Below, one piece after another: positions 350 through 58,366 of a DNA stretch of 64,000 nt. Under the pieces are notes generated by a model. It was not told the DNA's origin, made no database searches, and worked only from the letters and a program-made list of their open reading frames with translations. Both the position numbers and the translations under genes were made by a program. The DNA is from Alistipes sp. (GTDB taxonomy: Bacteria; Bacteroidota; Bacteroidia; Bacteroidales; Rikenellaceae): NCBI GenBank assembly GCA_017938765.1, contig JAGBAX010000028.1:124001-188000 (forward strand), given 5' to 3'. Positions within the stretch are counted from its first letter, which is position 1. Each line of letters starts with the position of its first letter.

Positions 350-475
350 AAAAACTAATTTTAAGTGCGGATTTACAACGCTCGGCTCAAAAAACAGCGA
401 AGGGCTGTACTAATCGTACTGCCCTTTGCTGGAGTTTGAGTTAGCGGCAGGAAATACCGCTTAAAATTAGTTTTT
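350..475 (-). repeat. nested-palindrome element, copy 1 (3' end of the 1496-residue lipoprotein gene)
   Basis: The outer arms 350-370 and 457-475 are inverted repeats of about 19 bp. The inner arms 395-405 and 421-431 pair with one mismatch around a loop containing GTACTAATCGTAC. Conserved frame words are ACAACGCTCGGC on the left and TTAGCGGCAG on the right. The right outer arm includes the stop codon of the upstream gene (474-476). Related elements are at 38190, 45414 and 58239. Confidence 0.8.
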
Positions 476-3400
476 AAGGTACGTAGTTGAAGTAAGCATT
501 ATCCTTCAAATAAACCTCCTTAGACTGGTGACCACCATAGATGTACTCTGAGAAGTTGTTCTCGTTGAGAACTACACCGTTTACAGAACCACCGACAGCA
601 GCAGCCTCAAGAACAAGCGCGTGCTCAAGGGTACAAGCTGTACCGATTGAAGAGAAGTGCTGTGTACCGAGGATAGCACCGATAGTTGACTCTGGGTGAG
701 TAGACTGGCTACTTACAGCACCACCGTTGATGTCTGCCTTAAGCTCACCGTAAATCATAGAACCGCAAACACCACCTACGTGTGCAATAACAGTCTCAGG
801 GTTGTCAGTGAGGAAGGATACAGTACCTACATTTGAGCTACCGTTGAGGAAGAATACGTAAGCGTCTGTATAACGGTTAGATGCCATCTTACCCATCACA
901 CCACCGAGGAATGCCTCTGAAGAAGCCTTGTTACACTTCAGTGTCACATTACCCATGTTAGAGCAAGAGTTGTAGTGAGGGTTGTAAGCATTTGCACCAG
1001 CACTTGCTACAGCACCACCTACGCAGATACCGCAGTTATCAGCATAACGCATAGAGCCCTCGTCAAGCTGAGTATTTGGAGTATCGCACTCTACATAGAT
1101 ATCACCCTGGTTGATAAGGAATGTGTTCTCACAACCTACAGCGATATTACACTGAGTGAAGCAGAGCAGACCACCAACACAGAAGTAGTCAATAGCATTT
1201 GTTGTACCAGCAATCTCAGTCTCCCAGTTCTTGTTAGAGTACTCGCCAGTAATGAATGGGTCGTAGTGTACAGCGTAAACTGTAATATCACCCTCATTAG
1301 TCAGACGGTTGAGGCTAGCCCACTGTGTACGACCTACACCACCAGAGAGTGCGAAGGTGTGTACTACTGCAGGGTCACCTGGCTCACCAACGTTGATGTT
1401 ACCATAGTTAGTACAGTTGTTGATGTTACCAAATACGTTAGTAATGTTGGTATCAACACGGTTTGTAGCATAACCAGCGATAGCACCAATATAGAATGTA
1501 CCGATATGACGCTCAACGTTCTTATCAACAACAATCTCACCGTAGTTCTGGCAGTTTGTAACCTCATAACCTGCAGCACGACCGATAAATCCACCGATAG
1601 TAGTGTAACGGTAGTAAGCGTGGGACATCTTTGATGTTGTACCAACAGGATACTCTGACTGAGTTACATTGTAGATGTGAATCTTACCATAGTTCTTACA
1701 GCCAGACATATGAGAGATAGCATCAAGGTCAGTTGGAGCACCAGAAGCCTCACCGATGAATGCGCCGATATAGATGTTATCGTTTGAGTGCTCACCGAAG
1801 ATGTTGATTGCACCGTAGTTAGTACAGTTCTCAATGTTACCTGTAGCCTCGTGGTCTGAACCCTCAGAGATAACACCTGCATTTACGAGGAATGACCAGC
1901 ACTGAGTCTGAGCAGTGTACTCAGAGAGTGAAATACGAAGCTCACAGCTCTCGTCAAATACCACGTTAGAGATTGTGTTACCATAAACAAGGTTGCGGAA
2001 CAGTGACTTGTTAGGAACATCAACAAGAAGGTTCTTGATAGGCACACCACCACCGTTGAAGTTCTCGTTAAGGTTTACATCTGGCCAGTTAGCCATCACG
2101 ATGCCGCTCATATCAATAACACCACCGTTAGCCTCAGTAGCTACGAAACCGTAGTCACCGTCAAGGTTACGATACTTAGCCATATCCTCGCCACTCTTAC
2201 CTGCTGCAAGGTCAGATACGAAGTTGAGGAATGTAGCACCAGAGTCAATACCAGTTGTTACCACATCTGGAGCGAGGGTCTTAGTGCAATCATCAAGGTT
2301 TACAAGGTGCTTAGTAACATTACCAGCAACATAGTCAGCTGCAGGAAGCTCTACAGTGTAGTAGTATGCACCAGCATAGATATCTGCAGTGATTGTGCGC
2401 TGCTCTGCTGCCCAAACGCCGAGGTATACATTTGCTGCATCGTACTCGTTATCTGGAATGATGATAGCCTTGTCTGCTACTGCCTCAACGGTTGAGAGCG
2501 GATTGAGCTCTGCAACATCCTGACGGCTGTAGAGGTTTACAGTATGTGAACCAGCGATATTGTTACCACGAATGACAACCTTTGAAATCTTGTCGTTCAT
2601 CTTAGTCTTTGAGTAAACACCAAGCTGAAGAACTGAAGAGACAATCTGCATATCGCAACGCATCATACGAGTTGTACGGTAGCTCTGGTCGTTAACCATA
2701 ATCATTGGAGTAGAGTCAAGAACAAGAGCATCGTCTGTAATGCGCTGTGCTGTAGGCACTGAGAGTGAGATATCGCCAGCAGCAGCGTCGTTAGAAGCAT
2801 CGTATGGGCTATATACATAGACGGCCTTACCAGCATCGCCAGTGTTAGGGTTTGTACCTACGAACTGGTTGCTACCAGAGGTAGTTGAGCGGAGGTTGTT
2901 TGTTGTACCTGCATACAGACCAAGAACAGCGTTGTTAGAGAAGTAAACATCACCACCGGTATAGTACTGCTGTGCGCCGAAGTCATTTACAAGAGTAAGG
3001 AACTTATAGCCATCAGAAGAGTCTACAACCTGACCGCAACCTGCAAAGCGGAAGTTTGCAGTATTACGCAGATAGTTAGTACCGTTGTGGTCTACCTTAT
3101 TGATACGCTGGTAGTTAGTTGAGTTACATGGACCGCAAGTAAGGTTAGAAACCAGACGCAGACGCAAGAAGTAGTAACCATCCTCCATAGCATCAGGGAA
3201 GTTGATAATTACCTTATCTGGGTCAGTAGTGCAAACCTTTGAGCTCTTACCACCCATAAAGCCCTCAGAGTGGGTAATTACACCCTTCCAGTAACCTGCA
3301 GGAGATGATGCACTACCGATTGGAATACCTGATGAGTTCTTTGGAATATCTACATCATTTGGCACCTCTATATCTACAAGGTTCCACTGTGTCCAGTCAA

Positions 3401-4964
3401 GAGAGTCATAGAAAGCATCCTTCTCTGGATCATCAAGCATAATGATTGGACGGCCGTTGAGCTTATACTCGTCAGCAGTACACTGTGCCCACTCAAAGAT
3501 GTGATACTTACCACCTGCATCAGTACCCATAAATGAGAACTCACAAGCAAGGTTAGTATTTGCAGCAGCGTTGTGTACAGGGATAGTCCAAATCCAGTAG
3601 TCACCCTCGTACATACCAGTAATCTTTGGAGAAGAGGATGTTACGAGCATACCGTCGTTACCTGCACGCTTCTTAACGATAGAAGCCTCAGTACCCATAA
3701 TAAACTGTACGTTTGCAGATGTCTGAAGGGCTGTAGAGAACTCTACTGGCTCCTCCTTCTCATATGCACCAGACTCCTCTGAAAGAACGATTGCGAATGC
3801 CTCCCAGTTGTCACCCTTAGTCTCACCCTGCTTCAGGTCGTTGAACTTGAAGTTTACAGGAAGACCGATAATATCTGAACCAAGCTCAATAAGAGGGAAG
3901 ATATTGTCAGATGGATCGTACTCTGAGAAGAAGATATCGTCAATACGGTAAACATCCTCAGAAGTATTCTCAAAGCGGAAGTAGAGAATCTTGCTCACAT
4001 TTGGAGCGATAGAGAAGTCAAATGTATTGAGTGACCAATCATTTGTTGGGTGCTCAGTGTGGATATACTCCATCTCTGCCCAGTTATTGTTGTCGTGAGA
4101 GATGTAGAGCTTAAGGTCGTTAGTGCTAAAGCGACCGTCGCAGTTCTTTGCACCAAATGAGAGGTAGAAGTCAGTCTTATCCTGATTGTTGAAGTTACGG
4201 ATATCGAAGTGACCAGCACCGTCAATCATAATATTTGCGCCACCAGAAGCCTCAAGGTCAAACTGAACATCGTAATACTTCTTTGACTGATCGTCTACAG
4301 AGGCGTATACGTTGTCAGAAGATGCGTAAGCATAAGCATAGAGGTCACCGGCAGTAGCTACACCGTTGTAAGACTTGCTACCATCAGCGTTTGCAAATGT
4401 GTAGAACTTAACAAGGGTGTTCTCCTTAATCATGTCACCACCGAAGTCATCCTGAACGAATACAAGGCGGCTCTCGTTAAGGTTGGTCTTAGGACCACGC
4501 TGACGAACATGAACTGTATATGTAGTCTCGCGAGTCTTGAACACTACAGAAGCAGTACGATCCTCACCACTATTCTCACCCATAGTAAGATATACATTGG
4601 TTACAGATGTTGCAGGCTGCGGACCTCCGAGAGGAGAGACCTCAAGCCAAGGCTCAATCTCAGTAACCTCGCCAGTCTCTGGATTAGTAACAGTAGTCTG
4701 GTCGTACTCTACAGATACGGTCCAGTATACGCTAGAGTTTACCTCAAGATAAGGCACTGTACCGGTTGTACCGACACCGAGCTTATTGAGCACCAACTCC
4801 TGTGACTGGTCAGCAGCATCCCACTGTGCCTCACCAGTAGAGTAGTCAATGTCAAACGGAACGAAAGTACTCTCGTCGTTCGTTTGACTGGTAGTACAAG
4901 CAAAGGCGAACATAGCTACCGCAAATGCTGCTACCAAGTTGAAAAGTTTTCTTAAAGTTTTCAT
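474..4964 (-). CDS. large surface lipoprotein with BACON-like N-terminus and C-terminal NYG-type repeats
   Basis: 1496 residues. The N-terminus is a lipoprotein signal with lipobox AFAC, cysteine about residue 23. Residues about 80-160 resemble a BACON domain (WLEVSP, then a RTASVVF-like strand, ending VRQRG). Residues about 165-350 look like a jelly-roll or carbohydrate-binding type beta domain. The C-terminal third (about 1050-1400) carries repeated modules with GGFIGRAAG-like and NYGxI motifs, resembling GLUG-type beta-helix repeats. It is the last gene of the SusC/SusD operon, 17 bp after the phosphoesterase gene, so it likely acts as a SusE/F-like or adhesive surface protein. Ligand unknown. 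The stop codon lies inside a palindromic element. Confidence 0.75.
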   Translation of the reverse strand: MKTLRKLFNLVAAFAVAMFAFACTTSQTNDESTFVPFDIDYSTGEAQWDAADQSQELVLNKLGVGTTGTVPYLEVNSSVYWTVSVEYDQTTVTNPETGEVTEIEPWLEVSPLGGPQPATSVTNVYLTMGENSGEDRTASVVFKTRETTYTVHVRQRGPKTNLNESRLVFVQDDFGGDMIKENTLVKFYTFANADGSKSYNGVATAGDLYAYAYASSDNVYASVDDQSKKYYDVQFDLEASGGANIMIDGAGHFDIRNFNNQDKTDFYLSFGAKNCDGRFSTNDLKLYISHDNNNWAEMEYIHTEHPTNDWSLNTFDFSIAPNVSKILYFRFENTSEDVYRIDDIFFSEYDPSDNIFPLIELGSDIIGLPVNFKFNDLKQGETKGDNWEAFAIVLSEESGAYEKEEPVEFSTALQTSANVQFIMGTEASIVKKRAGNDGMLVTSSSPKITGMYEGDYWIWTIPVHNAAANTNLACEFSFMGTDAGGKYHIFEWAQCTADEYKLNGRPIIMLDDPEKDAFYDSLDWTQWNLVDIEVPNDVDIPKNSSGIPIGSASSPAGYWKGVITHSEGFMGGKSSKVCTTDPDKVIINFPDAMEDGYYFLRLRLVSNLTCGPCNSTNYQRINKVDHNGTNYLRNTANFRFAGCGQVVDSSDGYKFLTLVNDFGAQQYYTGGDVYFSNNAVLGLYAGTTNNLRSTTSGSNQFVGTNPNTGDAGKAVYVYSPYDASNDAAAGDISLSVPTAQRITDDALVLDSTPMIMVNDQSYRTTRMMRCDMQIVSSVLQLGVYSKTKMNDKISKVVIRGNNIAGSHTVNLYSRQDVAELNPLSTVEAVADKAIIIPDNEYDAANVYLGVWAAEQRTITADIYAGAYYYTVELPAADYVAGNVTKHLVNLDDCTKTLAPDVVTTGIDSGATFLNFVSDLAAGKSGEDMAKYRNLDGDYGFVATEANGGVIDMSGIVMANWPDVNLNENFNGGGVPIKNLLVDVPNKSLFRNLVYGNTISNVVFDESCELRISLSEYTAQTQCWSFLVNAGVISEGSDHEATGNIENCTNYGAINIFGEHSNDNIYIGAFIGEASGAPTDLDAISHMSGCKNYGKIHIYNVTQSEYPVGTTSKMSHAYYRYTTIGGFIGRAAGYEVTNCQNYGEIVVDKNVERHIGTFYIGAIAGYATNRVDTNITNVFGNINNCTNYGNINVGEPGDPAVVHTFALSGGVGRTQWASLNRLTNEGDITVYAVHYDPFITGEYSNKNWETEIAGTTNAIDYFCVGGLLCFTQCNIAVGCENTFLINQGDIYVECDTPNTQLDEGSMRYADNCGICVGGAVASAGANAYNPHYNSCSNMGNVTLKCNKASSEAFLGGVMGKMASNRYTDAYVFFLNGSSNVGTVSFLTDNPETVIAHVGGVCGSMIYGELKADINGGAVSSQSTHPESTIGAILGTQHFSSIGTACTLEHALVLEAAAVGGSVNGVVLNENNFSEYIYGGHQSKEVYLKDNAYFNYVP

Positions 4965-4981
4965 ATTGTTAGGTATTTTTA

Positions 4982-7099
4982 TTATTCAAGTGTCCAAGTA
5001 TTGTCAATCTTACTACCATCGTAGAACTTCTTAGGACGCTCCATAGTCTCCTGATATACTCTGCCGAAACGGTCCTTAACCTTAATAATCAAGGTTGTAT
5101 TCGGTGCAGAGGCTGTTACGCGGAACATATGGTTGAAGGCTGTTGAGCTACAAGAGTTTGCAGAGAAAGACTTCTTCTCCTGAACACCGTAGACATAAAT
5201 CTCTCCTGCAAGAGCCATCAACGGGTCACGAACTGTACCGTTGAGCTGCTCAACATCAAGTGGCTTGCCGTTCTCGGTAACTGTAATATCCCAGTCGCCA
5301 TAAGAGCCGTACTTACCATTCTCATAACCCCATACATTGATCCATACAGTGTTATCAGCCTCCTCATATCCATACTGCTTCTTGTTGATATTAACTGTAT
5401 TATTACCACCATTAGCAGTATTAACATATGAGCCTGCGGTGATAAACTTCTGTGCAGGGCCGTAGCTATCATAGTACTTCTTCACCTCATTCATATCGTA
5501 GCTCTTGAACTGCTTTGTTGCAGGCTCACCCACAAACTTATAGCGCCAAGTACGATTTGTTCCACTAACCTCGTATACATAGTAACAAGATGGAGTACCA
5601 TCTGCGCAGAGGTTAATAGCTCCAGACTTGCTGTTTGTACCACCTGTACGCTGGCTTGAGTTCCACCAAACACCACAAACGGCGCCGATGTTATGCTCGT
5701 ACATATTTGTACCATAGCCAGGAACTGGACGGAAACGAGTCTGATGTGTATGACCAGTAATGAAGTTTACATCCTTATAGTCCTTGAACAAGTCCACAAA
5801 GTTCTTCCAGCTTGTAGAGCTTGTAAACTCCGTGTTACGGCCGCTACCAGTCCAGTTTACCAGTGGAATGTGCAATCCGACAACAATTGGAGTATCCTTG
5901 CTCACATACTTCAAATCCTTCTCAACCCATGTAACCATATCCTGACGGAAGTCAGCGTAGTAGTTACACTCGCCCATAAGTGGGTCGTTGACAGAATTGG
6001 AACCTCCGAACTCGTTCACATAGATAATATCATCCAAAAGCATATAGTGAACCTTACCGAAGTTCATTGCCACGTGTGTAGGGCCAACCATCTTACGATA
6101 TGGGCCTGAAGCACGAAGGTCAACATCCTCTCCTGCTGGAGTGTGTCCGTCGTGGTCGTGGTTACCAAGGGTAGACCAAACCTGACATGGAAGACCGCTG
6201 ATGTAGTCCGATGGATGGTGTGTAAGAGACTCTGCCCAACCAATATCGTTCTTATACCAGTGTACGTCGTGCGCAAAGTCGCCCAAATTGAGGCAATATA
6301 CATTGCTCTTGCCTGTATAGTCTGCGATAAGCTCCTTTACAAAGCCATCACGGAACTGTGTACAGTCATTTGGAGACAAGCTACGATTGGTAAGGTGGAT
6401 ATCAGTTGCCACAAGCACTGTATGGTCGTCTGTAGACTGCTTGATAAGCTCAAAGTTGTACTGCTCCTCATTAGCTGTATCGGCAGAGGTCTGTGACCAG
6501 TACTTTGGCATACCACCCTGTGTAGGCACGTTGTAGCCTGAAGGGAGAATCACATAGACAACCTCGTAGGTCTTACGAGATTTGAGCCAATAGTGACCAT
6601 CCGCATTTGTCTCGGTAATCTCAACGCCATCTGTGACAAGTACGCCCTTAACACCCTTATTGCCGCAGTAGACCATACCCTTAAGGTTGTAACCATCCTT
6701 GCTCGGAACCTTGTTATCAACGCTCTGAACAGTGACATTTGTGGTAAACAACTCCTGAGTCTGCTCTCCACGACGAAGTGTAAGAGTATACTTTCCATCA
6801 ACAATCTCATTTGGCACAGCAAAACGGAACCAACTTGTGCTAAGACGAGTAATCGCGCACTCAAAGGTCTTGCTGCCCTCCATTACAAGAATATCGGTCT
6901 GCTCTGCGCCAGTAGCGGTAATACGGTAGTCACCACCTGGGGTAAGAAGCATAGATGCCTCTGACTTAACATTGGTAACAAGCGCACTGCTACCACCACC
7001 TGGCTCGTCAGTTCCACCGGAGCCGCCACAAGCGACAGCTCCAGCAAGAACTGCTAAACAGAGGAGTATATTCAATATATAACTCTTGATGTTTTTCAT
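4982..7099 (-). CDS. calcineurin-like metallophosphoesterase lipoprotein
   Basis: 705 residues from the ATG at 7099; an upstream TTG at 7105 is less likely. The signal peptide ends in lipobox AVAC followed by a Gly/Ser-rich tether, so the protein is membrane anchored, probably surface exposed. Residues about 40-190 contain beta-rich regions including a carboxypeptidase-regulatory-like segment. The catalytic domain shows the metallophosphoesterase motif series ATDIHL, LGDFAHD, LGNHDHD, VGLHIP and GHTH, all metal ligands present. A beta-rich C-terminal domain follows. The family hydrolyses phosphomonoesters or diesters; the substrate here is unknown. Its position inside a SusC/SusD operon suggests removal of phosphoryl groups from an imported polymer or nutrient. 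Confidence 0.85.
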   Translation of the reverse strand: MKNIKSYILNILLCLAVLAGAVACGGSGGTDEPGGGSSALVTNVKSEASMLLTPGGDYRITATGAEQTDILVMEGSKTFECAITRLSTSWFRFAVPNEIVDGKYTLTLRRGEQTQELFTTNVTVQSVDNKVPSKDGYNLKGMVYCGNKGVKGVLVTDGVEITETNADGHYWLKSRKTYEVVYVILPSGYNVPTQGGMPKYWSQTSADTANEEQYNFELIKQSTDDHTVLVATDIHLTNRSLSPNDCTQFRDGFVKELIADYTGKSNVYCLNLGDFAHDVHWYKNDIGWAESLTHHPSDYISGLPCQVWSTLGNHDHDGHTPAGEDVDLRASGPYRKMVGPTHVAMNFGKVHYMLLDDIIYVNEFGGSNSVNDPLMGECNYYADFRQDMVTWVEKDLKYVSKDTPIVVGLHIPLVNWTGSGRNTEFTSSTSWKNFVDLFKDYKDVNFITGHTHQTRFRPVPGYGTNMYEHNIGAVCGVWWNSSQRTGGTNSKSGAINLCADGTPSCYYVYEVSGTNRTWRYKFVGEPATKQFKSYDMNEVKKYYDSYGPAQKFITAGSYVNTANGGNNTVNINKKQYGYEEADNTVWINVWGYENGKYGSYGDWDITVTENGKPLDVEQLNGTVRDPLMALAGEIYVYGVQEKKSFSANSCSSTAFNHMFRVTASAPNTTLIIKVKDRFGRVYQETMERPKKFYDGSKIDNTWTLE

Positions 7100-7137
7100 T
7101 TTCAATAACTTGAAAAATAGTCTAATGCTTTATCAAC

Positions 7138-7896: not shown

Positions 7897-7916
7897 ATCT
7901 GTTTCGCTTTTTAGAA

Positions 7917-38001: not shown

Positions 38002-38118
38002 CGGATTTAGGGTAGCCTTGCGGCTATTACGACAAAAAATAGAGCCATTCACTTTCAAGCAAGCTTGAGTGAGGCTCTATTTTTCATCGTACTCTCTACG
38101 AGAGTTTCCCTAAATCCG
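38002..38118. repeat. nested palindrome, second sequence class
   Basis: Outer arms CGGATTTAGGG (38002-38012) and its complement (38108-38118). The inner stem AAAAATAGAGCC (38035-38046) pairs with 38073-38084 and extends imperfectly through CACTTTCAAGC/GCTTGAGTG. It has the same outer-inner architecture as the other elements but a different loop. The inner hairpin followed by T's would work as a terminator in both directions. Confidence 0.7.
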
Positions 38119-38154
38119 AATAAACACAGACAGACGAAGTCTGTACCTATGAAA

Positions 38155-38190
38155 GGCTAACAGCCAACGGCTAATGGCTAATGGCCAACA
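38155..38190. repeat. heptad repeat (GGCTAAT type)
   Basis: Five units of GGCTAAC, AGCCAAC, GGCTAAT, GGCTAAT, GGCCAAC, directly before the nested-palindrome element. Confidence 0.75.
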
Positions 38191-38318
38191 GTCTTTGGCA
38201 ACAGAATGTGGTAGCTGTAACGCTCGGCAAAAAAATCAGTCACGGATAGTACTAATTCGTACAGCCGTGACTGATTTTTATGTTAGCGGCAACAGATGCC
38301 GCATTATCTTGCCAAAGA

Positions 38319-38320
<2 letters not shown>
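38190..38320 (-). repeat. nested-palindrome element, copy 2 (3' end of gap)
   Basis: Outer arms AGTCTTTGGCAA (38190-38201) and the exact complement (38309-38320). Inner arms of 15 bp are perfect (38231-38245 with 38265-38279) around a 19-nt loop with TAGTACTAATTCGTACAG. Frame words CGCTCGGCAAAAAAAT and GTTAGCGGC are conserved. The right outer arm overlaps the gap stop codon (38319-38321). Confidence 0.85.
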
Positions 38321-39383
<1,063 letters not shown>

Positions 39384-43790: not shown

Positions 43791-43823
43791 AGCCAATGGC
43801 TAATGGCTAATGGCTAAAAGCCA
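43791..43823. repeat. heptad repeat (GGCTAAT type)
   Basis: Four units of AGCCAAT/GGCTAAT; inverted relative to the heptads at 43665-43690. Confidence 0.75.
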
Positions 43824-43885
43824 ATTTTGTCGTCAGAGTGGTGCAGTTACCACGCTCAATGAAAAATGCCTGCGCAGGATAGTAC
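43823..43885. repeat. half nested-palindrome element
   Basis: Matches the left half of the copy at 45414-45539 (ATTTTGTCGTCAGAG, CCACGCTCAATGAAAAATGC, then GGATAGTACT) and then breaks off. The right half is missing. Confidence 0.75.
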
Positions 43886-43950
43886 TGCAAATCCGATTTT
43901 AGGCGAGGATTTACCACGCTCGGCAAAAAAATTAGCAGTGCCAACCAAAA

Positions 43951-45295: not shown

Positions 45296-45412
45296 TTAGC
45301 TGTTAGCCGTTAGCTATTAGCCTTATAGAGGTGTCGGCAAAGCCGACTTATATACATCCGCAGTGCGGATACCTTGTTAAAGCCAATGGCTAATGGCCAA
45401 TAGCTAAAAGCC
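45296..45412. repeat. inverted pair of heptad arrays
   Basis: TTAGC-type units at 45296-45325 (five) face GGCTAAT-type units at 45381-45412 (four). Both arms could pair to form a long imperfect stem. Confidence 0.7.
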
Positions 45413-45413: not shown

Positions 45414-45539
45414 TTTTGTCGTCAGAGTAGTGCATTTACCACGCTCAATGAAAAATGCCTACGCAGGATAGTACTTTGACGTACAGCCCAGTAGGCATTT
45501 TTTATTAGCGGCAGGAAATGTGCCAATCTGACGACAAAA
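45414..45539 (-). repeat. nested-palindrome element, copy 3 (3' end of the YeiH-type gene)
   Basis: Outer arms TTTTGTCGTCAGA (45414-45426) and exact complement (45527-45539). Inner arms AAAAATGCCTAC (45451-45462) and complement (45491-45502) around GGATAGTACTTTGACGTACA. TTAGCGGCAG frame word is kept. The element abuts the stop codon at 45540. Confidence 0.85.
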
Positions 45540-46838
45540 TTATAGTCCGAGGGCAGGTTTCACTATACCAAACAACAACCACGCCACAAAGAATGTGAAG
45601 ATGATATTGAAGGTCTGTGCGCCGAGGAAGGTGTAGAGGATGTTACGATTCTCCTTTGACACGATATCCTTGAGGCGGGTATCCATACCGATGCAGACGA
45701 AGGCAAGTGAGAAGAAGAAGCCAGAGAAGTTCTTTGCCATAGAGGTCTCAACGAGCTTCTTAGCGGCATAGTCTGGGAAGATTTCGTAGCTCTGGAGCAG
45801 GCTGAAGACAGCTGATGCCAGAACAAAGCCCAGAACGAACTTAGGGAACTTATCCCAAACAATCTTGAGCGATGGGCGGTGGAGCTTACCGTCGCCAGCG
45901 CTCTTAGAAGAGAGGTAGAGGGCGATGAAGAATGCCACAACGCCGATAAGGACGTTCTGTGTAGCCTTAACAATCATTGCAATCTTATTTGCCTCGTCGC
46001 TATAGATAGCCGATGCTGCACCTACGCCGCTGGTAGTATCTACAGTACCGCCAATCCAAGCACCTGCAATCTGAGCCTGGATAGTTGGGTCATCTGTAAG
46101 CAGTGGCACGATGAGCTTTGCAAGGTAAGGCATTAAATATATCATAGGTACAACGATAATCAGCACCACAGATACGATATAAGAGAGCTTCTTACCATCT
46201 GTATTTGCAACACCCGCAGCAGTGATACAAGCAGAGACACCGCAGATTGAAAGACCAGAAGAGAGTGTCATACCGCTACGCTCATCAACGCCCATCTTCT
46301 TTGAGAGGAAAAAGGCGAACATCCACACGCAGAATACTACAACACAGCCCTGTATAAGAGCCAGAGAGCCAGCAGCCAAAAAGTCGCGGAACAGAATTGT
46401 AGCACCAAGGCAGACAACACCAATCTTGATGAAGAACTCGCCCTGAATAGCTGGCTTGAGCCACTCTGGGATGTGGAAGAGGTTGCGGATGATAAGTCCG
46501 AAGATTACAGAGAAGAATACAGCCTCAAAGCCCAAATCCTTAATAAAGCCTATTTTAGCAGTCAGCTGTGCGAGCATAGAGACGGCAAAGACAACCACAA
46601 AAGACCAAAATAGTCCACGCAAAGGGCGAGAGAGGAGCTTGTTACCCACATAGAGCAACACAAGCGCGATAAGGAACAATGCTCCGATATTGATCCAAGA
46701 CTCGGAGTGGAGCAGGTCTGACGAAATCTTGAGCGCATCCTTAGGAAGGAAGGTCGCCAAGCCCGCGATGATAAGGAGCGGAATAGATAGGAAAGTAACT
46801 ACCCAATCCTCAACCAACAATTTCTTAAATTTACTCAT
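45540..46838 (-). CDS. putative sulfate exporter family transporter (YeiH/UPF0324)
   Basis: 432 residues, about ten membrane helices. Family signatures: GLIIRNLFHIPEWLKPAI, IKIGVVCLGATILF, LSSGLSICGVSACITA and GAWIGGTVDTTSGVGAAS. Members are annotated as putative sulfate exporters from links to sulfonate metabolism, but transport has rarely been shown. It starts 27 bp after a porin gene, so outer and inner membrane steps may be coexpressed. Confidence 0.88.
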   Translation of the reverse strand: MSKFKKLLVEDWVVTFLSIPLLIIAGLATFLPKDALKISSDLLHSESWINIGALFLIALVLLYVGNKLLSRPLRGLFWSFVVVFAVSMLAQLTAKIGFIKDLGFEAVFFSVIFGLIIRNLFHIPEWLKPAIQGEFFIKIGVVCLGATILFRDFLAAGSLALIQGCVVVFCVWMFAFFLSKKMGVDERSGMTLSSGLSICGVSACITAAGVANTDGKKLSYIVSVVLIIVVPMIYLMPYLAKLIVPLLTDDPTIQAQIAGAWIGGTVDTTSGVGAASAIYSDEANKIAMIVKATQNVLIGVVAFFIALYLSSKSAGDGKLHRPSLKIVWDKFPKFVLGFVLASAVFSLLQSYEIFPDYAAKKLVETSMAKNFSGFFFSLAFVCIGMDTRLKDIVSKENRNILYTFLGAQTFNIIFTFFVAWLLFGIVKPALGL

Positions 46839-49349: not shown

Positions 49350-49374
49350 TAAAAAATTTGCCGAAATTTGAAAC

Positions 49375-51594: not shown

Positions 51595-51614
51595 ATAGGT
51601 TTAGGTTTAAATTT

Positions 51615-52565: not shown

Positions 52566-52581
52566 CTGTACCTCACAAATT

Positions 52582-52611
52582 TAGAAGTTGTTTAACGTTA
52601 AACAACTTCTA
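52582..52611. promoter_or_regulatory. 30-bp perfect palindrome before plsX
   Basis: Two complementary 15-mers with no loop (TAGAAGTTGTTTAAC and its complement), centred at 52596/52597, ending 16 bp before the plsX ATG. It could be an operator for a dimeric regulator or an RNA hairpin in the rpmF-plsX transcript. There is no T-run, so it is a poor terminator. Confidence 0.6.
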
Positions 52612-52615
52612 AAAC

Positions 52616-52645
52616 CAATAAAGCACCGTTGACGGTGCTTTATTG
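52616..52645 (-). terminator. hairpin after rpmF
   Basis: A 13-bp stem CAATAAAGCACCG with loop TTGA, followed on the minus strand by GGTTTTA. It may attenuate transcription between rpmF and plsX. Confidence 0.65.
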
Positions 52646-52662
52646 AGTCAATGTTTACTCAA

Positions 52663-52848
52663 TTACTCAACTACCTTCTTCTCGATAGCCAGCTTACCAC
52701 GGTAGAAACCGCACTCAGGACATACTCTGTGGTAGAGTACTGATGCACCGCAGTTTGAGCAAGCCACTACTGTAGGAGCTACTGCCTTGTAGTGGGTTCT
52801 TCTTTTGTCACGTCTGGTAGACGAGACTTTGTGTTTTGGATGTGCCAT
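52663..52848 (-). CDS. rpmF: 50S ribosomal protein L32
   Basis: 61 residues. MAHPKHKVSSTRRDKRRTHY and a zinc motif CSNCG followed by HRVCPECGFY are diagnostic. Lies between yceD and plsX as in most bacteria. It carries the intact four-cysteine form. Confidence 0.97.
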   Translation of the reverse strand: MAHPKHKVSSTRRDKRRTHYKAVAPTVVACSNCGASVLYHRVCPECGFYRGKLAIEKKVVE

Positions 52849-52876
52849 AATTAGTCTTAATATTAAGTTGTTAAAA

Positions 52877-53320
52877 TTATTCCGTTACACCACTTATACG
52901 CGCAATCATATCGGGGTTACACTCCCCCTCCTTGTGTGCGCGAATCATTGGTAAAGCCAGCATAATGCTGTCGTACACAAACTGTGCGATGCTCAGCTCG
53001 TCGCCACGCTGAAGAGTCACCTCCTCGCCGTCAAACTCCTTTGCAACATCGCCAAAGAGAAGTGTCATCTCCGCCTCAACATCAACCTCAAGAGTCACAT
53101 CGTCAAGGCAACGGTCGCACAGTGTAACCACCGTACCCTCGCCGCTTAACTGAATAACACTACGGTTGTGCGCCTCCTTATGACCACTGACTGTAAGCTT
53201 AAAATCGGCACCAGAAATATCAGTCATCTCCATTGCCTCAAATAGCTCCATACCCACCTGCAGCTCAAACTCAAAGTCGCTCTGCTGCACTGTCTGGGCG
53301 TCAATTACATATCTCTTCAT
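52877..53320 (-). CDS. yceD: DUF177/YceD family protein
   Basis: 147 residues from ATG 53320; a longer frame begins upstream of the predicted transcription start. FDLxxL-like N-terminus, and the conserved CDRCLDDVTLEVD segment followed by acidic EFDGEEV. The family acts in 23S rRNA accumulation in other bacteria and is always next to rpmF. Promoter at 53345. Confidence 0.88.
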   Translation of the reverse strand: MKRYVIDAQTVQQSDFEFELQVGMELFEAMEMTDISGADFKLTVSGHKEAHNRSVIQLSGEGTVVTLCDRCLDDVTLEVDVEAEMTLLFGDVAKEFDGEEVTLQRGDELSIAQFVYDSIMLALPMIRAHKEGECNPDMIARISGVTE

Positions 53321-53344
53321 ATCACTTTTGTGCGCTTTAGGTCG

Positions 53345-53352
53345 CAAAGGTA
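53345..53352 (-). promoter_or_regulatory. -7 box for yceD-rpmF-plsX
   Basis: TACCTTTG on the minus strand; start of transcription near 53338 supports the ATG at 53320. Confidence 0.55.
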
Positions 53353-53505
53353 TAGCATTTTTTTTGATTTTACAAACTTTTTCAAAAATTAGCTACCCCG
53401 CCTTTCCTAATATTTGTATAAAATTTGCCACTCTCTAATTTTAAGGACAATATTTAGCATAGTTTTTCCGTTAATTAGATACAGAAATATAAAAACACAA
53501 CGATT

Positions 53506-54276
53506 ATGATACAATATTTTGATTTAACAGGACAGGTTGCCGTAGTTACAGGAGCCTCAACAGGTTTGGGACTACAGATGGCAAAAGCGTTTGCAAATCA
53601 GGGCGCAAACATCGTTTTATTGGCTCGTAGATTCAATCTTTTGGAGCAGAATGCCGCACTTATTTCAGAGCAGTATGGCGTAGAGGTGCTTCCTCTCGCT
53701 TGTGACATAACAGACACAGAAGCCGTAAAGGCTGCCGTAGAGGCGACTATGGAGCGTTTTGGGCGCGTAGACATCCTTGTAAATAACGCTGGAACTGGCG
53801 CTATTGGCGATGCAGAGAGTATTACCGACGAGCAGTTTAAGCACGAACTTGAAATTGACCTCTTTGGAACATTTGTCTGTGCCCGTGAGTTTGGCAAGAA
53901 GATGATAGCAGCGGGCTATGGTCGCATTATCAACATCGCATCTATGTATGGTCTGGTGGGCAATATGATTGCAGGCAGCTCTCCATACCACGCAGCAAAG
54001 GGTGGTGTAGTAAACCTCACCCGTGCCCTTGCCGCAGAGTGGGGCAAGCACGGCATTACGGTAAATAGTATCTGTCCAGGCTATTTCTACACAGAGCTAA
54101 CAACGGCAACCCTTGACAGCGACTACTTCCAGAGCATAGCCAAACAGAACATCCCACTTGGTCGCTATGGTCGTGAGGGCGAGCTGAACACCTGCGCACT
54201 ATTCCTCGCCTCGCCAATGAGCACATATGTCAACGGACAGAATATCGCCGTTGATGGCGGTTACACCAGCATATAA
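53506..54276 (+). CDS. SDR family oxidoreductase (gluconate 5-dehydrogenase-like)
   Basis: 256 residues. Classical SDR: NAD(P) motif TGASTGLG, NNAG, catalytic Ser-Tyr-Lys (IASMYGL..., SPYHAAKGG) and CPGYFYTE. Closest in pattern to sugar-acid dehydrogenases such as gluconate 5-dehydrogenase or IdnO; substrate not certain. A single gene between the yceD operon and a convergent hydrolase gene. No -7 box is evident. Confidence 0.85.
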   Translation: MIQYFDLTGQVAVVTGASTGLGLQMAKAFANQGANIVLLARRFNLLEQNAALISEQYGVEVLPLACDITDTEAVKAAVEATMERFGRVDILVNNAGTGAIGDAESITDEQFKHELEIDLFGTFVCAREFGKKMIAAGYGRIINIASMYGLVGNMIAGSSPYHAAKGGVVNLTRALAAEWGKHGITVNSICPGYFYTELTTATLDSDYFQSIAKQNIPLGRYGREGELNTCALFLASPMSTYVNGQNIAVDGGYTSI

Positions 54277-54280
54277 TAAC

Positions 54281-54308
54281 AAGGGGAGGCTATGATTTGC
54301 CTCCCCTT
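54281..54308. terminator. convergent terminator after the SDR gene
   Basis: A perfect 10-bp stem AAGGGGAGGC/GCCTCCCCTT with an 8-nt loop, 4 bp after the SDR stop and 30 bp from the convergent gene end. Confidence 0.85.
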
Positions 54309-54338
54309 ATCCTATTTGTGGTTGAATTATTCAGCCTC

Positions 54339-56036
54339 CTACTGCTTTGCGCGGTACTCCTTTAGATAGTCAATCTGGAAGGCAGCCTTCTGCTCCTGAT
54401 ACTTAGCAAGCTTAGAGCCTGAGTGCCAAGTGGTATAGCCACCCGTAAGGCCTGCATCGTAGAGTCCGCGAATCTCCTTCTCAACATTCTCGGCATTGTA
54501 CTTAATACCGTTACGGTCTACATGGCGCATAACGTCGTAGGCCTGCACCCATGTACGGACAACAGCTGGCGTAGGAGTAACCTCCTGACGGCCCTGCACA
54601 CGCTCTCCCCACGCCTTGAGAATCTGGTAAGGATTGTTCCAAGGCTTCTTAATACCGTAGTAGCCATTTGAGAAGTGGTCTGGGTAAGGCATACCGCAGA
54701 TAGCATCAGCAATATTTGAGATTGCAGGCCAGTACTGACCATAGGCTGTCGTATAACCAGGATTTGCAGCCTCGCCAAAGACATCTATAGAGACGTAAGC
54801 GCCCACAGCGTGAATCTCATCACACGCATACTGCACAAAGCGCTGAATAGCCTGTACCTTGCTCTCGTTGTACTTGTTATGGTAGTCAATAAGGTTTTCA
54901 ACCTTTGTCATACGGTCTGGGAAACGGACATAGTCAAAGTTAATCTCGTTAAAGCCAAACTTGCGCACAGCCTCCTTTGCCAGCTCAACATTGAACTGCC
55001 AAACCTTACGGTCGTATGGACTTGGCCAGTATGCCTTGTTGTGCTTAAATGGCTTGCCTGTAGCCTTCTCGGTAATAGCCACCTCTGGGTGGTCCTTAAC
55101 AAGATATGAGTCCTTGAAGCAGGTAATTCGTCCCACAACATAGAAACCCTCCTCGTGCAGACGCTTAACAACCTTCTTGTAGAGCGCCTCCTTAGTAGCA
55201 CCCGCACGAGCATAGTTTGTTGGCGAGTAGAGCTTCATCGCCTCGGCCTTGTAGCCTGGACACTCGTTATCCTTGATGTCAATTGTAAAGGTGTTAATCT
55301 TTGTCTCCTTTGCAAAGGCTATGTAAGCCTCAATATTACCCAGTATCGCTGGCGAGATATTGAGGTAGAGCGAGTAGCAAGCCTCTGGCATCTTGTTGTT
55401 CTCAAACACCACGCGCTCTGTTGGATAAAAGTCGCAACCAATAGCCTCGCCACCACCAAATGGATTCTTAATGGCCTTATGCACCTTGTCGTACTCCTCA
55501 GCCTTGTAACGCTTCAGAGCCTCCTCTTTATTATATACGGTATACTTGGCGTAGATATATCCCTCAGTGTTACCCTGACGGACAATGTAACGATTTACGC
55601 GACCTGTCGCATAGAGCGTGTCGTAGCCGATAACAGCGAGCTCAGCGCCCTTGTCTGCATTTGCACCAACCTTTGAGGTCGCAACGTCCGAGATAATAGA
55701 TGCCGGTGTGCGCACAAAGATACTCTTCTCCTGCACCACCTCGCGGTGCGTTGCCACAAGAGCAGATGCTGGCACATAAAACCTCTGCTTGTCCACCTTT
55801 ACGGGCAGATACTCTACATCGTTAAACTTCTTACTGCCATTTACAACGACACTTAACTGCGCACCACGCACAAGGGTGTCAGCAACAGTCAAGTTCTCGC
55901 CCTGCTCATCGGCAGCATAGAGGTAAGCCTCTGGTCGCTCCGAAGCCAGATAACGCACCTCAATAATCTCTTCGCTGCTGCAAGCTACCATAGCCACAAC
56001 AGCCACAATCTGGGTTAATAATCTTTTCATATTCAT
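54339..56036 (-). CDS. putative glycoside hydrolase lipoprotein (DUF4015/GH13-like barrel)
   Basis: 565 residues from ATG 56036 (56030 also possible); longer frames begin upstream of the -7 box. Lipobox VAMVAC. Residues about 40-190 include an SH3-like segment (TLYATGRVNRYIVRQGNTEGYIYAKY). The barrel (about 215-540) has TFTIDIKDNE, GRITCFKDSYLV, NEINFDYVRFPDRM and GAYVSIDVFGEAANPGY, the pattern of the DUF4015 putative glycosidase family. Catalytic residues are not established; aspartates in IDIKD and FDYVRFPD are candidates. Surface or periplasmic. Confidence 0.8.
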   Translation of the reverse strand: MNMKRLLTQIVAVVAMVACSSEEIIEVRYLASERPEAYLYAADEQGENLTVADTLVRGAQLSVVVNGSKKFNDVEYLPVKVDKQRFYVPASALVATHREVVQEKSIFVRTPASIISDVATSKVGANADKGAELAVIGYDTLYATGRVNRYIVRQGNTEGYIYAKYTVYNKEEALKRYKAEEYDKVHKAIKNPFGGGEAIGCDFYPTERVVFENNKMPEACYSLYLNISPAILGNIEAYIAFAKETKINTFTIDIKDNECPGYKAEAMKLYSPTNYARAGATKEALYKKVVKRLHEEGFYVVGRITCFKDSYLVKDHPEVAITEKATGKPFKHNKAYWPSPYDRKVWQFNVELAKEAVRKFGFNEINFDYVRFPDRMTKVENLIDYHNKYNESKVQAIQRFVQYACDEIHAVGAYVSIDVFGEAANPGYTTAYGQYWPAISNIADAICGMPYPDHFSNGYYGIKKPWNNPYQILKAWGERVQGRQEVTPTPAVVRTWVQAYDVMRHVDRNGIKYNAENVEKEIRGLYDAGLTGGYTTWHSGSKLAKYQEQKAAFQIDYLKEYRAKQ

Positions 56037-56067
56037 CGTTTTCACTCTTTTCAAACACAATTCGCCA

Positions 56068-56105
56068 CAAAGGTACAAAAAAATCTTGCGGATGCAAGAT
56101 TTTTT
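56068..56105 (-). promoter_or_regulatory. hybrid terminator/promoter hairpin upstream of the DUF4015 gene
   Basis: TACCTTTG (56075-56068) with TTG (56097-56095) 19 nt upstream, minus strand. The TTG is inside a perfect 12-bp hairpin (56078-56089 with 56094-56105, AAAAAATCTTGC arms, GGAT loop), which also ends with a T-run suitable as terminator of the upstream TIR gene. The same arrangement occurs at 58139-58177. Confidence 0.7.
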
Positions 56106-56246
56106 GGCTATTAGCTGTTAGCCATTAGCCGTTAGCTTGCCTTCGGCAACACGACCCAGCTAACGCAGAACAGAGAATTTAGAGAATTTAATGAATTTAG
56201 ACTCTCTGTTATCTGTACTCTAAAAGGCTAACGGCTAATAGCTAAA
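56104..56246. repeat. inverted heptad arrays around a small palindrome
   Basis: TTAGC-type heptads (56104-56136) face GGCTAAC-type heptads (56226-56246). Between them, AACAGAGA (56169-56176) pairs with 56213-56220 around copies of TTTAGAGAATTTAATGA-like sequence. The right array ends at the TIR gene stop codon. Confidence 0.7.
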
Positions 56247-58118
56247 CTAAAAAGCGGACACGGCGCGCACATAGCCATCGCTATCCTTACTCATTGTCCA
56301 AGCCTGTCCATCACTCATTTCAATATACCAAGCACACGAATAACCATCATACTGACAATCATCTTCCGTTGACGACCAATAATCACTATCGGTAGACAAT
56401 TTATCAGTTAAATTAGAGTTGAGCTTATCTTTGTTTTTATAAATTGTATGCAGTTCTTCTTTTGACGGCAGATACCAACCTTCGCCAAGGTCGGCGCACC
56501 ACGCAAAGGCAGGATATTTCTCTCGCCAACCAGAGATAGCCTTGACCTTTGCCATATTTGCTGCACCGTCAGTCTCACTATCAGCACCAATTAAGTATTC
56601 CATTTCATACCAATCTATTGACCACTGCAAATGCCCTGCTGATTGCTTCATACTGACAATCTTGCCGTGACGGCCGTCTGCACTAACCTCAAAGACTACG
56701 CCCTCGCGCACACCGTCATTGTAGTAGTCGCCAACGCGATATATGCCCAATCTTCGTCTTCGTTCCGCCGCTTCGCGAGCTTTACGTTCCGCTTCCTCGC
56801 GTGCCTTGCGTTTCTTCTCAACAAATGCGCGAAAATCATCTTTTAAAATATCCTCTCCAAAGGTTGCTACGGCGCGCACATAGTGGTTGGTGCCCCTACT
56901 GTCGTGGTAGGTGTAGCCAATGGGCATATAGACACTCCACGCGCAAAACTCGCCGCTTGAAAATTTATAATTGTCCTCCGTTGATGACCAGTACCAACCC
57001 CTTTCACCTTCATCATACAACTTTGTACCACCTCTTGCTATGAGTGTACGATTAACAGCATTGTAAACAGCGGTGTTTAGCGCAAAGACCTTCAACTCCT
57101 CTATTGACGGTAGATACCAACCCTCTCCAAGGTCTGCGCACCACTTGAAGGCAGGGTATTTGTCTCGCCAACCATAGATAGCCGCAACTTTTGCCATATT
57201 TGCTGCACCGTCTATCTCGCTATCAGCACCTATTAGGCGTTTTTTTTCAGTCTCGTCAGATGACCATTGCAATATCTCTGCGGACCGCTTCATACTGACA
57301 ATCTTACCGTGACGACCATCGGCACTTACCTCAAAGACAACACCCTCACGCACACCGTCATTGTAGTAGTCGCCTACCGCGTATATACCCAGTCGTCGTC
57401 TACGCTCTGCCTCCTCGCGAGCCCTGCGTTTTGCTTCTTCGCGAGCCCTGCGTTCTGCCTCTTCGCGAGCTTTGCGTTCTGCCTCCTCGCGAGCCCTGCG
57501 TTCTGCCTCTTCACGAGCCTTGCGTTCTGCCTCTTCGCTAGCTTTGCGAGCAGCTTCCTCACGAGCTTTGCGTTCTGCCTCCTCACGAGCCCTGCGTTCT
57601 GCCTCCTCGCGGGCTTTACGTTCTGCCTCCTCGCGCACGCCGTCATTGTAGTAGTCGCCCACTTTGTCGGTCTTTGCAGGGGCTGGGGTTGGCTTGGTAA
57701 CATTTGAGGTTTTAGCACCTACAAGATTTGAGATGACAGTAACCAAATTTGCAAACCGCGTTTTAAAGTCTGGGTAAGCCTCAATCCAGTGGCGGTTGTT
57801 GAGCATTAGATAGAACTCGTCGTAGTTCTCAAGAGGGGTTGCGTCTATCTTATATGGAACAATTGGTCTGCGGTTTGAAAAGGCGATATTTATCTCGCTC
57901 TCTACCCAAGGAGAGATTGCCGAATACTCCGAAAAGACAAGCACAACAGCCTTGCACTCCTTAATGGCTTGAGTGATAACCGAAGCATACTTTGCGCCTA
58001 CGGGAATATCTCGCGGGGCCATCCAACACTTGATATTATTATCTTCAAGCTCATGACATATCGCCTGCGCAGCCGCTGAGTTTTTACTTGAATAACTTAT
58101 AAATACATCGTGATTCAT
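56247..58118 (-). CDS. TIR-domain protein with Glu/Arg-rich coiled coils and two DUF1566-like domains
   Basis: 623 residues from ATG 58118. Longer frames start upstream of the promoter. Residues 3-125 are a TIR_2-type domain (DVFISYSSKN, MAPRDIPVGAKY, WVESE at 71-75 with the candidate NADase glutamate E75). Residues about 162-242 are about ten octads of EEAERKAR type. Then a DUF1566-like domain (about 247-410; VGDYYNDGVREGVVFEVS, WCADLGEGWYLPS, YWSSTED), a second charged coil (about 425-450) and a second copy (about 450-623). An abortive domain start (VGDYYNDGVRE) occurs at 153-163 directly before the first coil. No signal peptide, so cytoplasmic. Role unknown; NAD-linked defence is possible. 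Confidence 0.8.
   Translation of the reverse strand: MNHDVFISYSSKNSAAAQAICHELEDNNIKCWMAPRDIPVGAKYASVITQAIKECKAVVLVFSEYSAISPWVESEINIAFSNRRPIVPYKIDATPLENYDEFYLMLNNRHWIEAYPDFKTRFANLVTVISNLVGAKTSNVTKPTPAPAKTDKVGDYYNDGVREEAERKAREEAERRAREEAERKAREEAARKASEEAERKAREEAERRAREEAERKAREEAERRAREEAKRRAREEAERRRRLGIYAVGDYYNDGVREGVVFEVSADGRHGKIVSMKRSAEILQWSSDETEKKRLIGADSEIDGAANMAKVAAIYGWRDKYPAFKWCADLGEGWYLPSIEELKVFALNTAVYNAVNRTLIARGGTKLYDEGERGWYWSSTEDNYKFSSGEFCAWSVYMPIGYTYHDSRGTNHYVRAVATFGEDILKDDFRAFVEKKRKAREEAERKAREAAERRRRLGIYRVGDYYNDGVREGVVFEVSADGRHGKIVSMKQSAGHLQWSIDWYEMEYLIGADSETDGAANMAKVKAISGWREKYPAFAWCADLGEGWYLPSKEELHTIYKNKDKLNSNLTDKLSTDSDYWSSTEDDCQYDGYSCAWYIEMSDGQAWTMSKDSDGYVRAVSAF
57400..57645 (-). repeat. 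24-bp tandem repeat inside the TIR gene
   Basis: Consecutive 24-bp units, consensus on the plus strand CGTTCTGCCTCCTCGCGAGC and variants, about ten copies, encoding EEAERKAR/EEAERRAR octads. Units differ at only a few bases, so slippage or recombination can change the number. Confidence 0.85.
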
Positions 58119-58138
58119 ACCATTTGTGAATAGTTGTA

Positions 58139-58177
58139 CAAAGGTAATAAAAAAATCTTGCGGATGCAAGATTTTTT
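58139..58177 (-). promoter_or_regulatory. hybrid terminator/promoter hairpin upstream of the TIR gene
   Basis: TACCTTTG (58146-58139) with TTG (58169-58167) 20 nt upstream, minus strand. The hairpin 58150-58161/58166-58177 has the same sequence as at 56078-56105. It would terminate the C1 peptidase transcript and begin the TIR transcript. Confidence 0.7.
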
Positions 58178-58198
58178 GGCTGTTAGCTGTTAGCCAAA
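58178..58198. repeat. heptad repeat (TTAGCTG type)
   Basis: Three units GGCTGTT, AGCTGTT, AGCCAAA adjoining the hairpin, as at 56104. Confidence 0.65.
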
Positions 58199-58238
58199 GG
58201 CGAGCCAGCGCTCGGCAAAGTTCAATTAGAACAACCCT

Positions 58239-58366
58239 ATTTTGTCGTCAGAGCGCGGTAGATACGACGCTCGGCAAAAATCCCAGCGATGGATAGTACT
58301 AAAATGTACAGCCATTGCTGGGATTTTTGTTAGCGGAAGTAGGTATCCGCGTTCTGACGACAAAAT
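58239..58366 (-). repeat. nested-palindrome element, copy 4 (3' end of the C1 peptidase gene)
   Basis: Outer arms of 20 bp with one mismatch (58239-58258 with 58347-58366). Inner arms of 17 bp with one mismatch (58276-58292 with 58312-58328), loop containing TAGTACTAAAATGTACAG. Conserved words CGCTCGGCAAAAA and GTTAGCGG. The right arm ends on the first base of the peptidase stop codon. Confidence 0.87.

What the first reader, a model, noticed from the sequence alone, without database searches (positions are those of the whole stretch)
350..58366. Family of nested palindromes with conserved frame and variable stems, sitting on stop codons
Four full copies (350-475, 38190-38320, 45414-45539, 58239-58366) share one architecture: an outer inverted repeat, the word ACGCTCGG or ACGCTCAATG, an inner inverted repeat with A/T-run edges, a loop with GTAC...GTAC, the word TTAGCGG, and the outer arm again. 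The stem sequences differ between copies but stay self-complementary, so the fold is conserved rather than the sequence. Each copy lies at the 3' end of a minus-strand gene (1496-aa lipoprotein, gap, YeiH-type exporter, C1 peptidase), in the same orientation, and reaches the stop codon. Seen in sequence. I infer either a terminator or RNA-processing family, or a non-autonomous mobile element that inserts at 3' ends. Half copies at 239-300 and 43823-43885 support mobility.
Basis: partly seen in the sequence, partly recalled or inferred. Interest (0 to 1): 0.8.

Follow-up and report, generated by a model that had tools for sequence, protein, structure and literature searches.

The report
Mobile hairpins sitting on stop codons
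A gut bacterium carries dozens of about 130-base hairpin elements whose sequence changes but whose fold does not, most of them placed almost exactly at stop codons of genes that run with replication; the same hairpin tip turns up in a few unrelated bacteria, and how they spread is unknown.

Summary
Confirmed, and larger than reported. The four copies belong to a family of nested hairpins of about 130 bp: 43 places in this 2.1 Mb draft genome, matches in 16 of 37 genus genomes. Stems co-vary: 113 distinct inner stems pair 86-99% with their own partner, 25-59% with swapped ones. The tip GGATAGTAC-N-GTACAGCC recurs, 1-6 copies each, in five Desulfovibrionales-type genomes, one Chitinophagaceae and one Spirochaetaceae, but in 0 of 295 other sampled Bacteroidota. 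Most copies abut a stop codon in fixed orientation; on contig C24 they occupy 12 of 46 leading-strand and 0 of 30 lagging-strand transcription-unit ends. The strand opposite to the gene's coding strand folds better: G.T against A.C pairs 466 to 106. I read it as a REP-like or MITE-like mobile palindrome, moving as single-stranded hairpin by an unidentified enzyme and doubling as terminator. Y1, IS110, IS630 and reverse transcriptase do not explain it. Location at 3' ends, a supplied stop codon and some stem variation have REP precedent; size, cross-phylum tip and one-strand orientation I did not find described. Chitinophagaceae copies break the placement rule.

The parts
350..475 (+). Full copy 1 (CM core 360-464, 81.0 bits); strand given is that of CGCTC...TTAGCGG, antisense to the host gene
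244..344 (+). Degraded copy lying gene-distal to copy 1, tandem (33.0 bits)
474..4964 (-). 1496-aa gene with BACON domain; its stop codon lies in the outer arm of copy 1
38190..38320 (+). Full copy 2 (core 38202-38306, 93.0 bits)
38319..39335 (-). gap (GAPDH) ending at copy 2, stop TAG
43834..43921 (+). Degraded copy (26.4 bits, E 8.4e-4)
45414..45539 (+). Full copy 3 (core 45423-45528, 102.2 bits)
45540..46838 (-). PF03601 (YeiH-type) gene ending at copy 3, stop TAA
58239..58366 (+). Full copy 4 (core 58249-58354, 95.2 bits)
58366..59742 (-). Peptidase C1-like gene ending at copy 4, stop TAA

Best explanation
A family of non-autonomous mobile palindromes of the REP/MITE kind. The active form is the single-stranded hairpin of the strand opposite to the host gene's coding strand. 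An unidentified enzyme recognises the conserved tip (GG-ATA-GTAC-N-GTAC-AG-CC) and the conserved internal loops, and tolerates any paired stem. New copies land at stop codons of genes co-directional with replication, the element's first base (A or G) overlapping the third base of the stop. Once there, the inner stem and its T-rich stretch act as a terminator. Shown: family, fold, covariation, position and orientation in the genus, the better-folding strand, patchiness, within-genome amplification. Inferred: mobility itself, the single-stranded intermediate, the enzyme, insertion into the stop codon, and termination.
For: Matches in 16 of 37 genus genomes (1 to 63 per genome, some palindromes counted on both strands) and 0 of 24 genomes of other families of the order; 0 of 295 other sampled Bacteroidota, yet 1-6 copies in each of 7 distant genomes, reversed-pattern control 0. 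Identical inner stems in 49 of 621 pairs within genomes against 30 of 3565 between; in the own genome three stem types make 17 of 30 copies, and inner and outer modules are re-assorted. Orthologous gene ends in related species carry unrelated members, another hairpin family or none. 109 of 112 listed copies share their contig's orientation (null max 95). G.T exceeds A.C on the + strand in 99 of 107 genus copies (6 the other way, 2 ties) and 12 of 14 Desulfovibrionales copies. Desulfovibrionales stops next to elements: TGA 0 of 10 against 24 of 45 (p 0.003).
Against: No mobilising gene found: Y1 transposase in 0 of 37 genus genomes and 1 of 7 others, IS110 in 1 of 44, IS630 over cut-off in 0 of 44, RT in 14 of 37 without tracking copies. 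No target-site duplication. No clean empty site, because 3' regions differ completely between species. The Chitinophagaceae copies do not follow the placement: 2 of 5 abut a gene end on the opposite side, 3 of 5 none. One G003 copy lies upstream of genes, not at a 3' end. With stricter gene calls the stop-codon shift in the genus is weak (TAA 59 of 82 against 269 of 448, p 0.048; TGA p 0.69). Energy alone favours + in only 16 of 26 own copies.
Confidence: 0.47

Rival explanations
1. A host-domesticated 3'-end element: a structured terminator or mRNA 3' protector selected at ends of leading-strand genes, spreading by recombination between copies rather than by transposition.
For: Sits at transcription-unit ends. 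The 12 C24 ends with an element have no other terminator-like site in the first 110 nt, against 7 of 34 minus ends without (not tested for significance, small numbers; detector strict, blind to the element's own stem). T-rich stretch in sense in 88% of copies. At gap, two species carry what look by eye like shrunken copies turned into plain terminators (G006, G022). Same genes recur: gap 4 loci, pgk in Bacteroidales and Desulfovibrio, phosphoglucomutase 3 loci.
Against: Wobble pairs favour the strand that is not in the mRNA. Outer arms beyond the T-rich stretch co-vary too. Ten of 23 readable species have other or plain terminators at gap. On C24 a quarter of minus-strand ends carry it, so recurrence at one gene is partly chance.
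Confidence: 0.27
2. A small RNA or RNA-binding-protein site transcribed from the + strand (antisense to the host gene), multiplied as a regulon.
For: The + strand folds better; conserved tip and internal loops look like binding features.
Against: Left flanks, read by eye, are unrelated repeats (no promoter scan was run). No Rfam family at gathering score in the window; permissive scans gave only matches below the families' scores for these hairpins. The gene on the left is on the + strand in only 8 of 15 C24 cases.
Confidence: 0.12
3. attC-like recombination sites of an integron-type tyrosine recombinase.
For: Site directly after the gene, mostly fixed orientation, structure more conserved than sequence, strand opposite to the gene folds better (attC features recalled).
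Against: Paired RYYYAAC/GTTRRRY boxes in 0 of 162 copies on either strand (shuffled mean 0.2). Several host genes are housekeeping genes. Integrase not searched.
Confidence: 0.04

Closest known systems
REP / BIME elements with RAYT (IS200/IS605-type) transposases
   Same: Palindromic, multicopy, many within 20 bp of 3' ends of genes; termini of GTAG REPs often supply the TAG stop codon (PMC3733652, section 15 read); families include units with different stem, loop or tail (PMC3733652, passage)
   Different: About 130 bp with nested stems instead of 20-40 bp; GTAG or CGTC tag in only 11 and 9 of 162 copies; fixed tip shared across phyla; Y1 transposase in only 1 of 44 genomes searched
Bacterial MITE-like hairpin elements (ERIC, CREE/NEMIS, RUP, YPAL)
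   Same: About 100-200 bp, transcripts fold as long stem-loops, several with TA at the termini (PMC2229807, passages). TA lies within 4 nt of the left arm in 3 of 10 Desulfovibrionales and 4 of 5 Chitinophagaceae copies (its own count of 4 of 10 includes one misplaced match)
   Different: Here stems differ between copies and species while pairing is kept; that those families keep their sequence is recalled. No TSD found
Repetitive hairpin-forming elements of sponge mitochondria
   Same: Hairpin elements, structurally and compositionally divergent, scattered distribution, recurrent invasion (PMC2800124, abstract)
   Different: Organellar; no stop-codon placement in the abstract I read
Intrinsic terminators
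   Same: Stem followed by a T-rich stretch on both strands, at transcription-unit ends
   Different: Conserved tip, long outer arms, multicopy family, folding bias to the other strand

Membership tests
REP (RAYT-mobilised) | 20-40 bp palindrome with GTAG or CGTC tag at one end | tested here: not met
   About 130 bp; GTAG in the outer 16 nt of 11 and CGTC of 9 of 162 copies
REP (RAYT-mobilised) | Y1 (RAYT) transposase in the genome, flanked by the repeat | tested here: not met
   PF01797 in 0 of 37 and 1 of 7
REP (RAYT-mobilised) | Location next to 3' ends of ORFs | tested here: met
   144 of 188 copies have a minus ORF ending 20-130 nt right of the tip, 119 of those at 48-64 nt; left side 47 of 188, 11 of them at 48-64 (some copies occur in two loci, a few chance hits included). 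Not met in Chitinophagaceae on that side (0 of 5)
MITE (IS-derived) | Terminal inverted repeats | tested here: met
   Outer 10-nt arms 8.78 of 10 complementary, swapped 3.93 (69 distinct arms)
MITE (IS-derived) | Target-site duplication | tested here: not met
   2-mers 13 against 8.5 shuffled (max 17), 4-mers 2 against 0.5 (max 3), 130 copies
MITE (IS-derived) | Ends shared with an autonomous IS | tested here: inconclusive
   IS110 1 of 44, IS630 0 of 44 over cut-off; other IS families not searched. 69 of 79 ORFs beside non-genus copies: no transposase among the 25 of 70 Pfam families shown
Integron attC | RYYYAAC / GTTRRRY boxes | tested here: not met
   0 of 162 copies on either strand
Integron attC | IntI integrase in genome | not tested
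Retroelement (group II intron, retron) | Reverse transcriptase tracks the element | tested here: not met
   RVT_1 in 14 of 37; none in G011, G017, G021, G022, G028, G034, which have 23-63 matches
Known RNA family | Rfam match at gathering score | tested here: not met
   0 in the window; for single elements only matches below the families' scores, e.g. LOOT RF03000 15.6 bits against 46.4
Intrinsic terminator | Transcript ends at the U-tract | not testable with these tools
   needs RNA 3'-end mapping

The most novel reading that the evidence does not exclude
A new class of mobile hairpin, shared across phyla by its tip, that is written into the stop codon itself (between its second and third base) of genes co-directional with replication, by a mechanism that senses translation termination or the mRNA end (for example A-site mRNA cleavage of the RelE kind, recalled and untested) and so spares the protein. 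I lowered this from 0.18 when a stricter recount weakened the stop-codon shift and showed that Chitinophagaceae copies are placed differently.
Probability: 0.13. Interest if true: 0.88.

Novelty: new variant of a known kind. Interest (0 to 1): 0.64.

Why it matters
This family keeps shape rather than sequence, with all four Watson-Crick pairs at 10 of 11 inner-stem positions, and in its main genus it is placed within a few bases of stop codons and on one replication strand. That is a clean system to ask how a palindrome is recognised by fold, how it comes to lie at stop codons, and what moves palindromes that lack a RAYT transposase, a question left open for CGTC repeats (PMC3733652).

Tried and rejected
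RAYT/IS200, IS110, IS630 and reverse transcriptase as movers: absent or not tracking. Rfam identity: none. Pfam scan of 69 of 79 ORFs next to non-genus copies: housekeeping-type families among the 25 of 70 shown. Genes flanked by inverted copies as a REPtron: one such pair, G003:C51 near 214129(+) and 216507(-), encloses two FKBP-domain genes and no transposase; in the two other mixed contigs looked at (G000:C13, G003:C28) copies of opposite strand are 12 kb or more apart. Tandem polarity (proximal intact, distal decayed): seen by eye in some loci, scores do not agree, dropped. A left linker (16 of 108) is shared with other local repeats and not taken as part of the element. Viral scan: 4 hits, none of this architecture by eye. 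An arm-end measurement drifted into the flank and its script crashed; replaced. A first count of stop codons (Desulfovibrionales TAG 11, TAA 3, TGA 0 against 25, 21, 61; genus TAA p 8e-4) allowed overlapping ORFs in all frames; the non-overlapping recount keeps only the Desulfovibrionales TGA depletion (p 0.003) and a marginal genus TAA excess (p 0.048); Desulfovibrionales TAG is not significant (6 of 10 against 15 of 45, p 0.16), nor is the own contig. Recurrence at the same genes is not claimed as significant.

Literature: searches showed me no description of this family; that is a statement about those nine searches only.

Full report
Observation. The four copies are real, each one long nested hairpin far more stable than shuffled sequence (z -7.7 to -9.0). 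Each lies at the 3' end of a minus-strand gene. The window is part of a 2.10 Mb, 29-contig, 87% complete draft genome, position C24:124001-188000.

Size of the family. A tip pattern finds 26 places in the own genome with 0 for the reversed pattern. A covariance model from 20 own copies finds 53 matches at E <= 1e-3 (150 of 820 candidates scored), 43 distinct places after I removed 10 opposite-strand hits at the same palindrome. The two half copies are degraded members (33.0 and 26.4 bits). In 61 genomes, 16 have matches, all in the genus: 16 of 37 genus genomes and 0 of 24 from other families of the order. Counts there run from 1 to 63, are capped at 64 scored candidates per genome and may include opposite-strand hits. 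The model is built on one species, so diverged members may be missed.

Distribution. 105 are in MAGs labelled Alistipes sp. or Rikenellaceae, many from ruminant guts by their titles. Some of these contigs have exactly the lengths of contigs in the genus genomes searched (402,394 and 175,021 bases). Nine lie elsewhere. Two of the nine (Rheinheimera, Hafnia) I took as chance: the Rheinheimera sequence shown is not such a hairpin, and neither appears among the hairpins printed. Seven fold as nested hairpins with the same tip: five Desulfovibrionales-type genomes, one Chitinophagaceae, one Spirochaetaceae (one copy of each folded). Each of the seven genomes has 1-6 exact tips, 26 in all, control 0. 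By contrast 0 of 295 other sampled Bacteroidota genomes have an exact tip. The tip is thus a rare, patchy, cross-phylum feature and not background.

Fold and covariation. In 147 nonredundant copies, Watson-Crick pairing is high in the inner stem and again in the outer arm (74-93% at 45-54 nt from the tip), lower and rich in wobbles and fixed mismatches between them, and falls to 39-57% at 55-64 nt, where the aligner still drifts. This sets the element at about 125-130 bp. Of 181 distinct copies, 151 have a gapless inner stem (the filter was at least 8 of 11 pairs, so absolute pairing rates are inflated). Among 113 distinct inner stems, own partners pair at 86-99% per position and swapped partners at 25-59%, and all four Watson-Crick types occur at 10 of 11 positions. 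Outer arms agree 8.78 of 10 with their own partner against 3.93 swapped.

Which strand folds. G.T pairs on the + strand (opposite to the host gene's coding strand) outnumber A.C, which would be G.T on the sense strand: 466 to 106 in 107 genus copies, 99 copies favouring + and 6 sense; 44 to 20 in 14 Desulfovibrionales copies, 12 against 2. The effect lies in the middle of the element: inner stem 60 to 47, not significant. Energy alone is less clear: + was more stable in 16 of 26 own copies. Related copies share inherited wobbles, so the counts are not independent events, but the second lineage agrees.

Position. Of 188 copies, 144 have a minus-strand ORF ending 20-130 nt right of the tip, 119 of them at 48-64 nt; on the other side 47 of 188, 11 at 48-64 (some copies sit in two overlapping loci and a few chance hits are included). 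With arm ends measured on deduplicated copies, 78 of 130 stops lie within 4 nt of the arm end, most often with the stop's third base 1-2 bp inside the arm (43 of 130). On C24, 12 of 46 minus and 0 of 30 plus transcription-unit ends (gap >= 100 bp) carry an element (Fisher p 0.0023), and core-to-stop distance is 9-16 nt in all 12. Three of the 15 C24 copies are not at a stop: a tandem remnant, another remnant, and one that by eye follows a terminator. Two of three Spirochaetaceae copies have a minus gene ending 43-45 nt to the right. Chitinophagaceae copies differ: 2 of 5 abut a plus-strand gene end on the left, none on the right. One G003 copy lies upstream of genes.

Stop codons. By eye the arm's first base often doubles as the third base of the stop (TA|A, TG|A, TA|G), as reported for GTAG REPs, whose termini often provide the stop TAG (PMC3733652). 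Counts support this only in part. With non-overlapping ORFs, Desulfovibrionales stops next to elements are TAG 6, TAA 4, TGA 0 against 15, 6, 24 (TGA p 0.003); named genus loci TAA 59, TAG 16, TGA 7 against 269, 132, 47 (TAA p 0.048, others not significant); C24 TAA 9, TAG 2, TGA 1 against 106, 75, 34 (not significant). A looser count gave stronger numbers, which I do not rely on. In the ortholog pairs I read, proteins end at the same place with and without an element, for example GAPDH ...AYNK.

Orientation. On 31 contigs with at least two copies (from 43 own places plus the 121 relatives' rows that one search listed), 28 are uniform and 109 of 112 copies share the contig's orientation; with the 60:40 gene bias of C24 the simulated maximum was 95 of 112 (tandem copies not merged). 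GC skew of the C24 + strand is negative in 16 of 16 bins and genes there are 154 minus, 102 plus, so host genes run with the fork if, as usual (recalled), the leading strand is G-rich. GC skew was measured on C24 only.

Turnover. For gap, 30 genomes were searched, 26 loci tried and 23 ends read. By eye, five have this element, each with a different sequence (one with an altered tip); six have a second hairpin family with tip AGCATAC-N-GTATGTGAG; two have what look like shrunken remnants; ten have other or plain terminators. The second family sits in the same way (13 of 16 beside a minus ORF end) and shares outer arms by eye, so the hairpins look modular. Among 586 ortholog pairs in fetched loci, 32 have the element on both sides, 137 on one, 417 on neither (regex call, altered tips missed, many loci chosen for having elements). 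Identical inner stems make 49 of 621 pairs within genomes and 30 of 3565 between. These are marks of a family that multiplies in each genome.

Mechanism. I prefer a mobile palindrome recognised by shape as single strand, because one strand folds better, orientation follows replication, copies amplify per genome, and distribution is patchy across phyla. The enzyme is missing: Y1, IS110, IS630 and RT do not track it. Terminator use is plausible but secondary: at least 5 T in 10 nt after the inner stem in sense in 88% of 147 copies, + strand 75%; 0 of 12 ends with an element have another terminator-like site within 110 nt against 7 of 34 minus and 8 of 30 plus ends without (no significance claimed).

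Odds.

Literature seen: PMC3733652 (abstract, passages, section 15), PMC2229807 (passages), PMC2800124 and PMC2817692 (abstracts). The RelE comparison, attC features and the YeiH name are recalled.

Noticed in passing
G000:C24 225094, 225215, 267245; L210, L218-L220, L233, L235, L012, L018: A second hairpin family with tip AGCATAC-N-GTATGTGAG at gene 3' ends, 13 of 16 next to a minus ORF end, sharing outer arms with the GTAC family by eye.
   Followed up: partly
window 200-235, 38150-38190, 45380-45412, 58180-58200: GGCTAATGGCC-type short repeats lie gene-distal of these copies.
   Followed up: no
window 38110-38140; L033, L041, L044, L057 left flanks: Other intergenic repeats, e.g. CCTAAATCCGAATAAACACAGACGAAGTCTGTACC and GTGTCGGCAAAGCCGAC...ATCCGCAGTGCGGAT, crowd the same intergenic regions.
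   Followed up: no
L194, L196: Copies whose inner hairpin is inverted relative to the outer arms.
   Followed up: no
G000:C24 310962-311067 (L038): A copy placed directly after the T-tract of what looks by eye like an ordinary terminator instead of at a stop codon.
   Followed up: partly
L163, downstream of the gene starting near 2066: A copy with the tip changed to GTAT...ATAC, both sides altered so that pairing is kept.
   Followed up: no
L267, L274 (Chitinophagaceae, G065): Copies with the same tip placed at the 3' end of a plus-strand gene on the left, the reverse of the usual orientation; this genome is also the only one of the seven with a Y1 transposase.
   Followed up: partly
L204 3687-3907 (-): Cobalamin riboswitch, 68.5 bits.
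   Followed up: no
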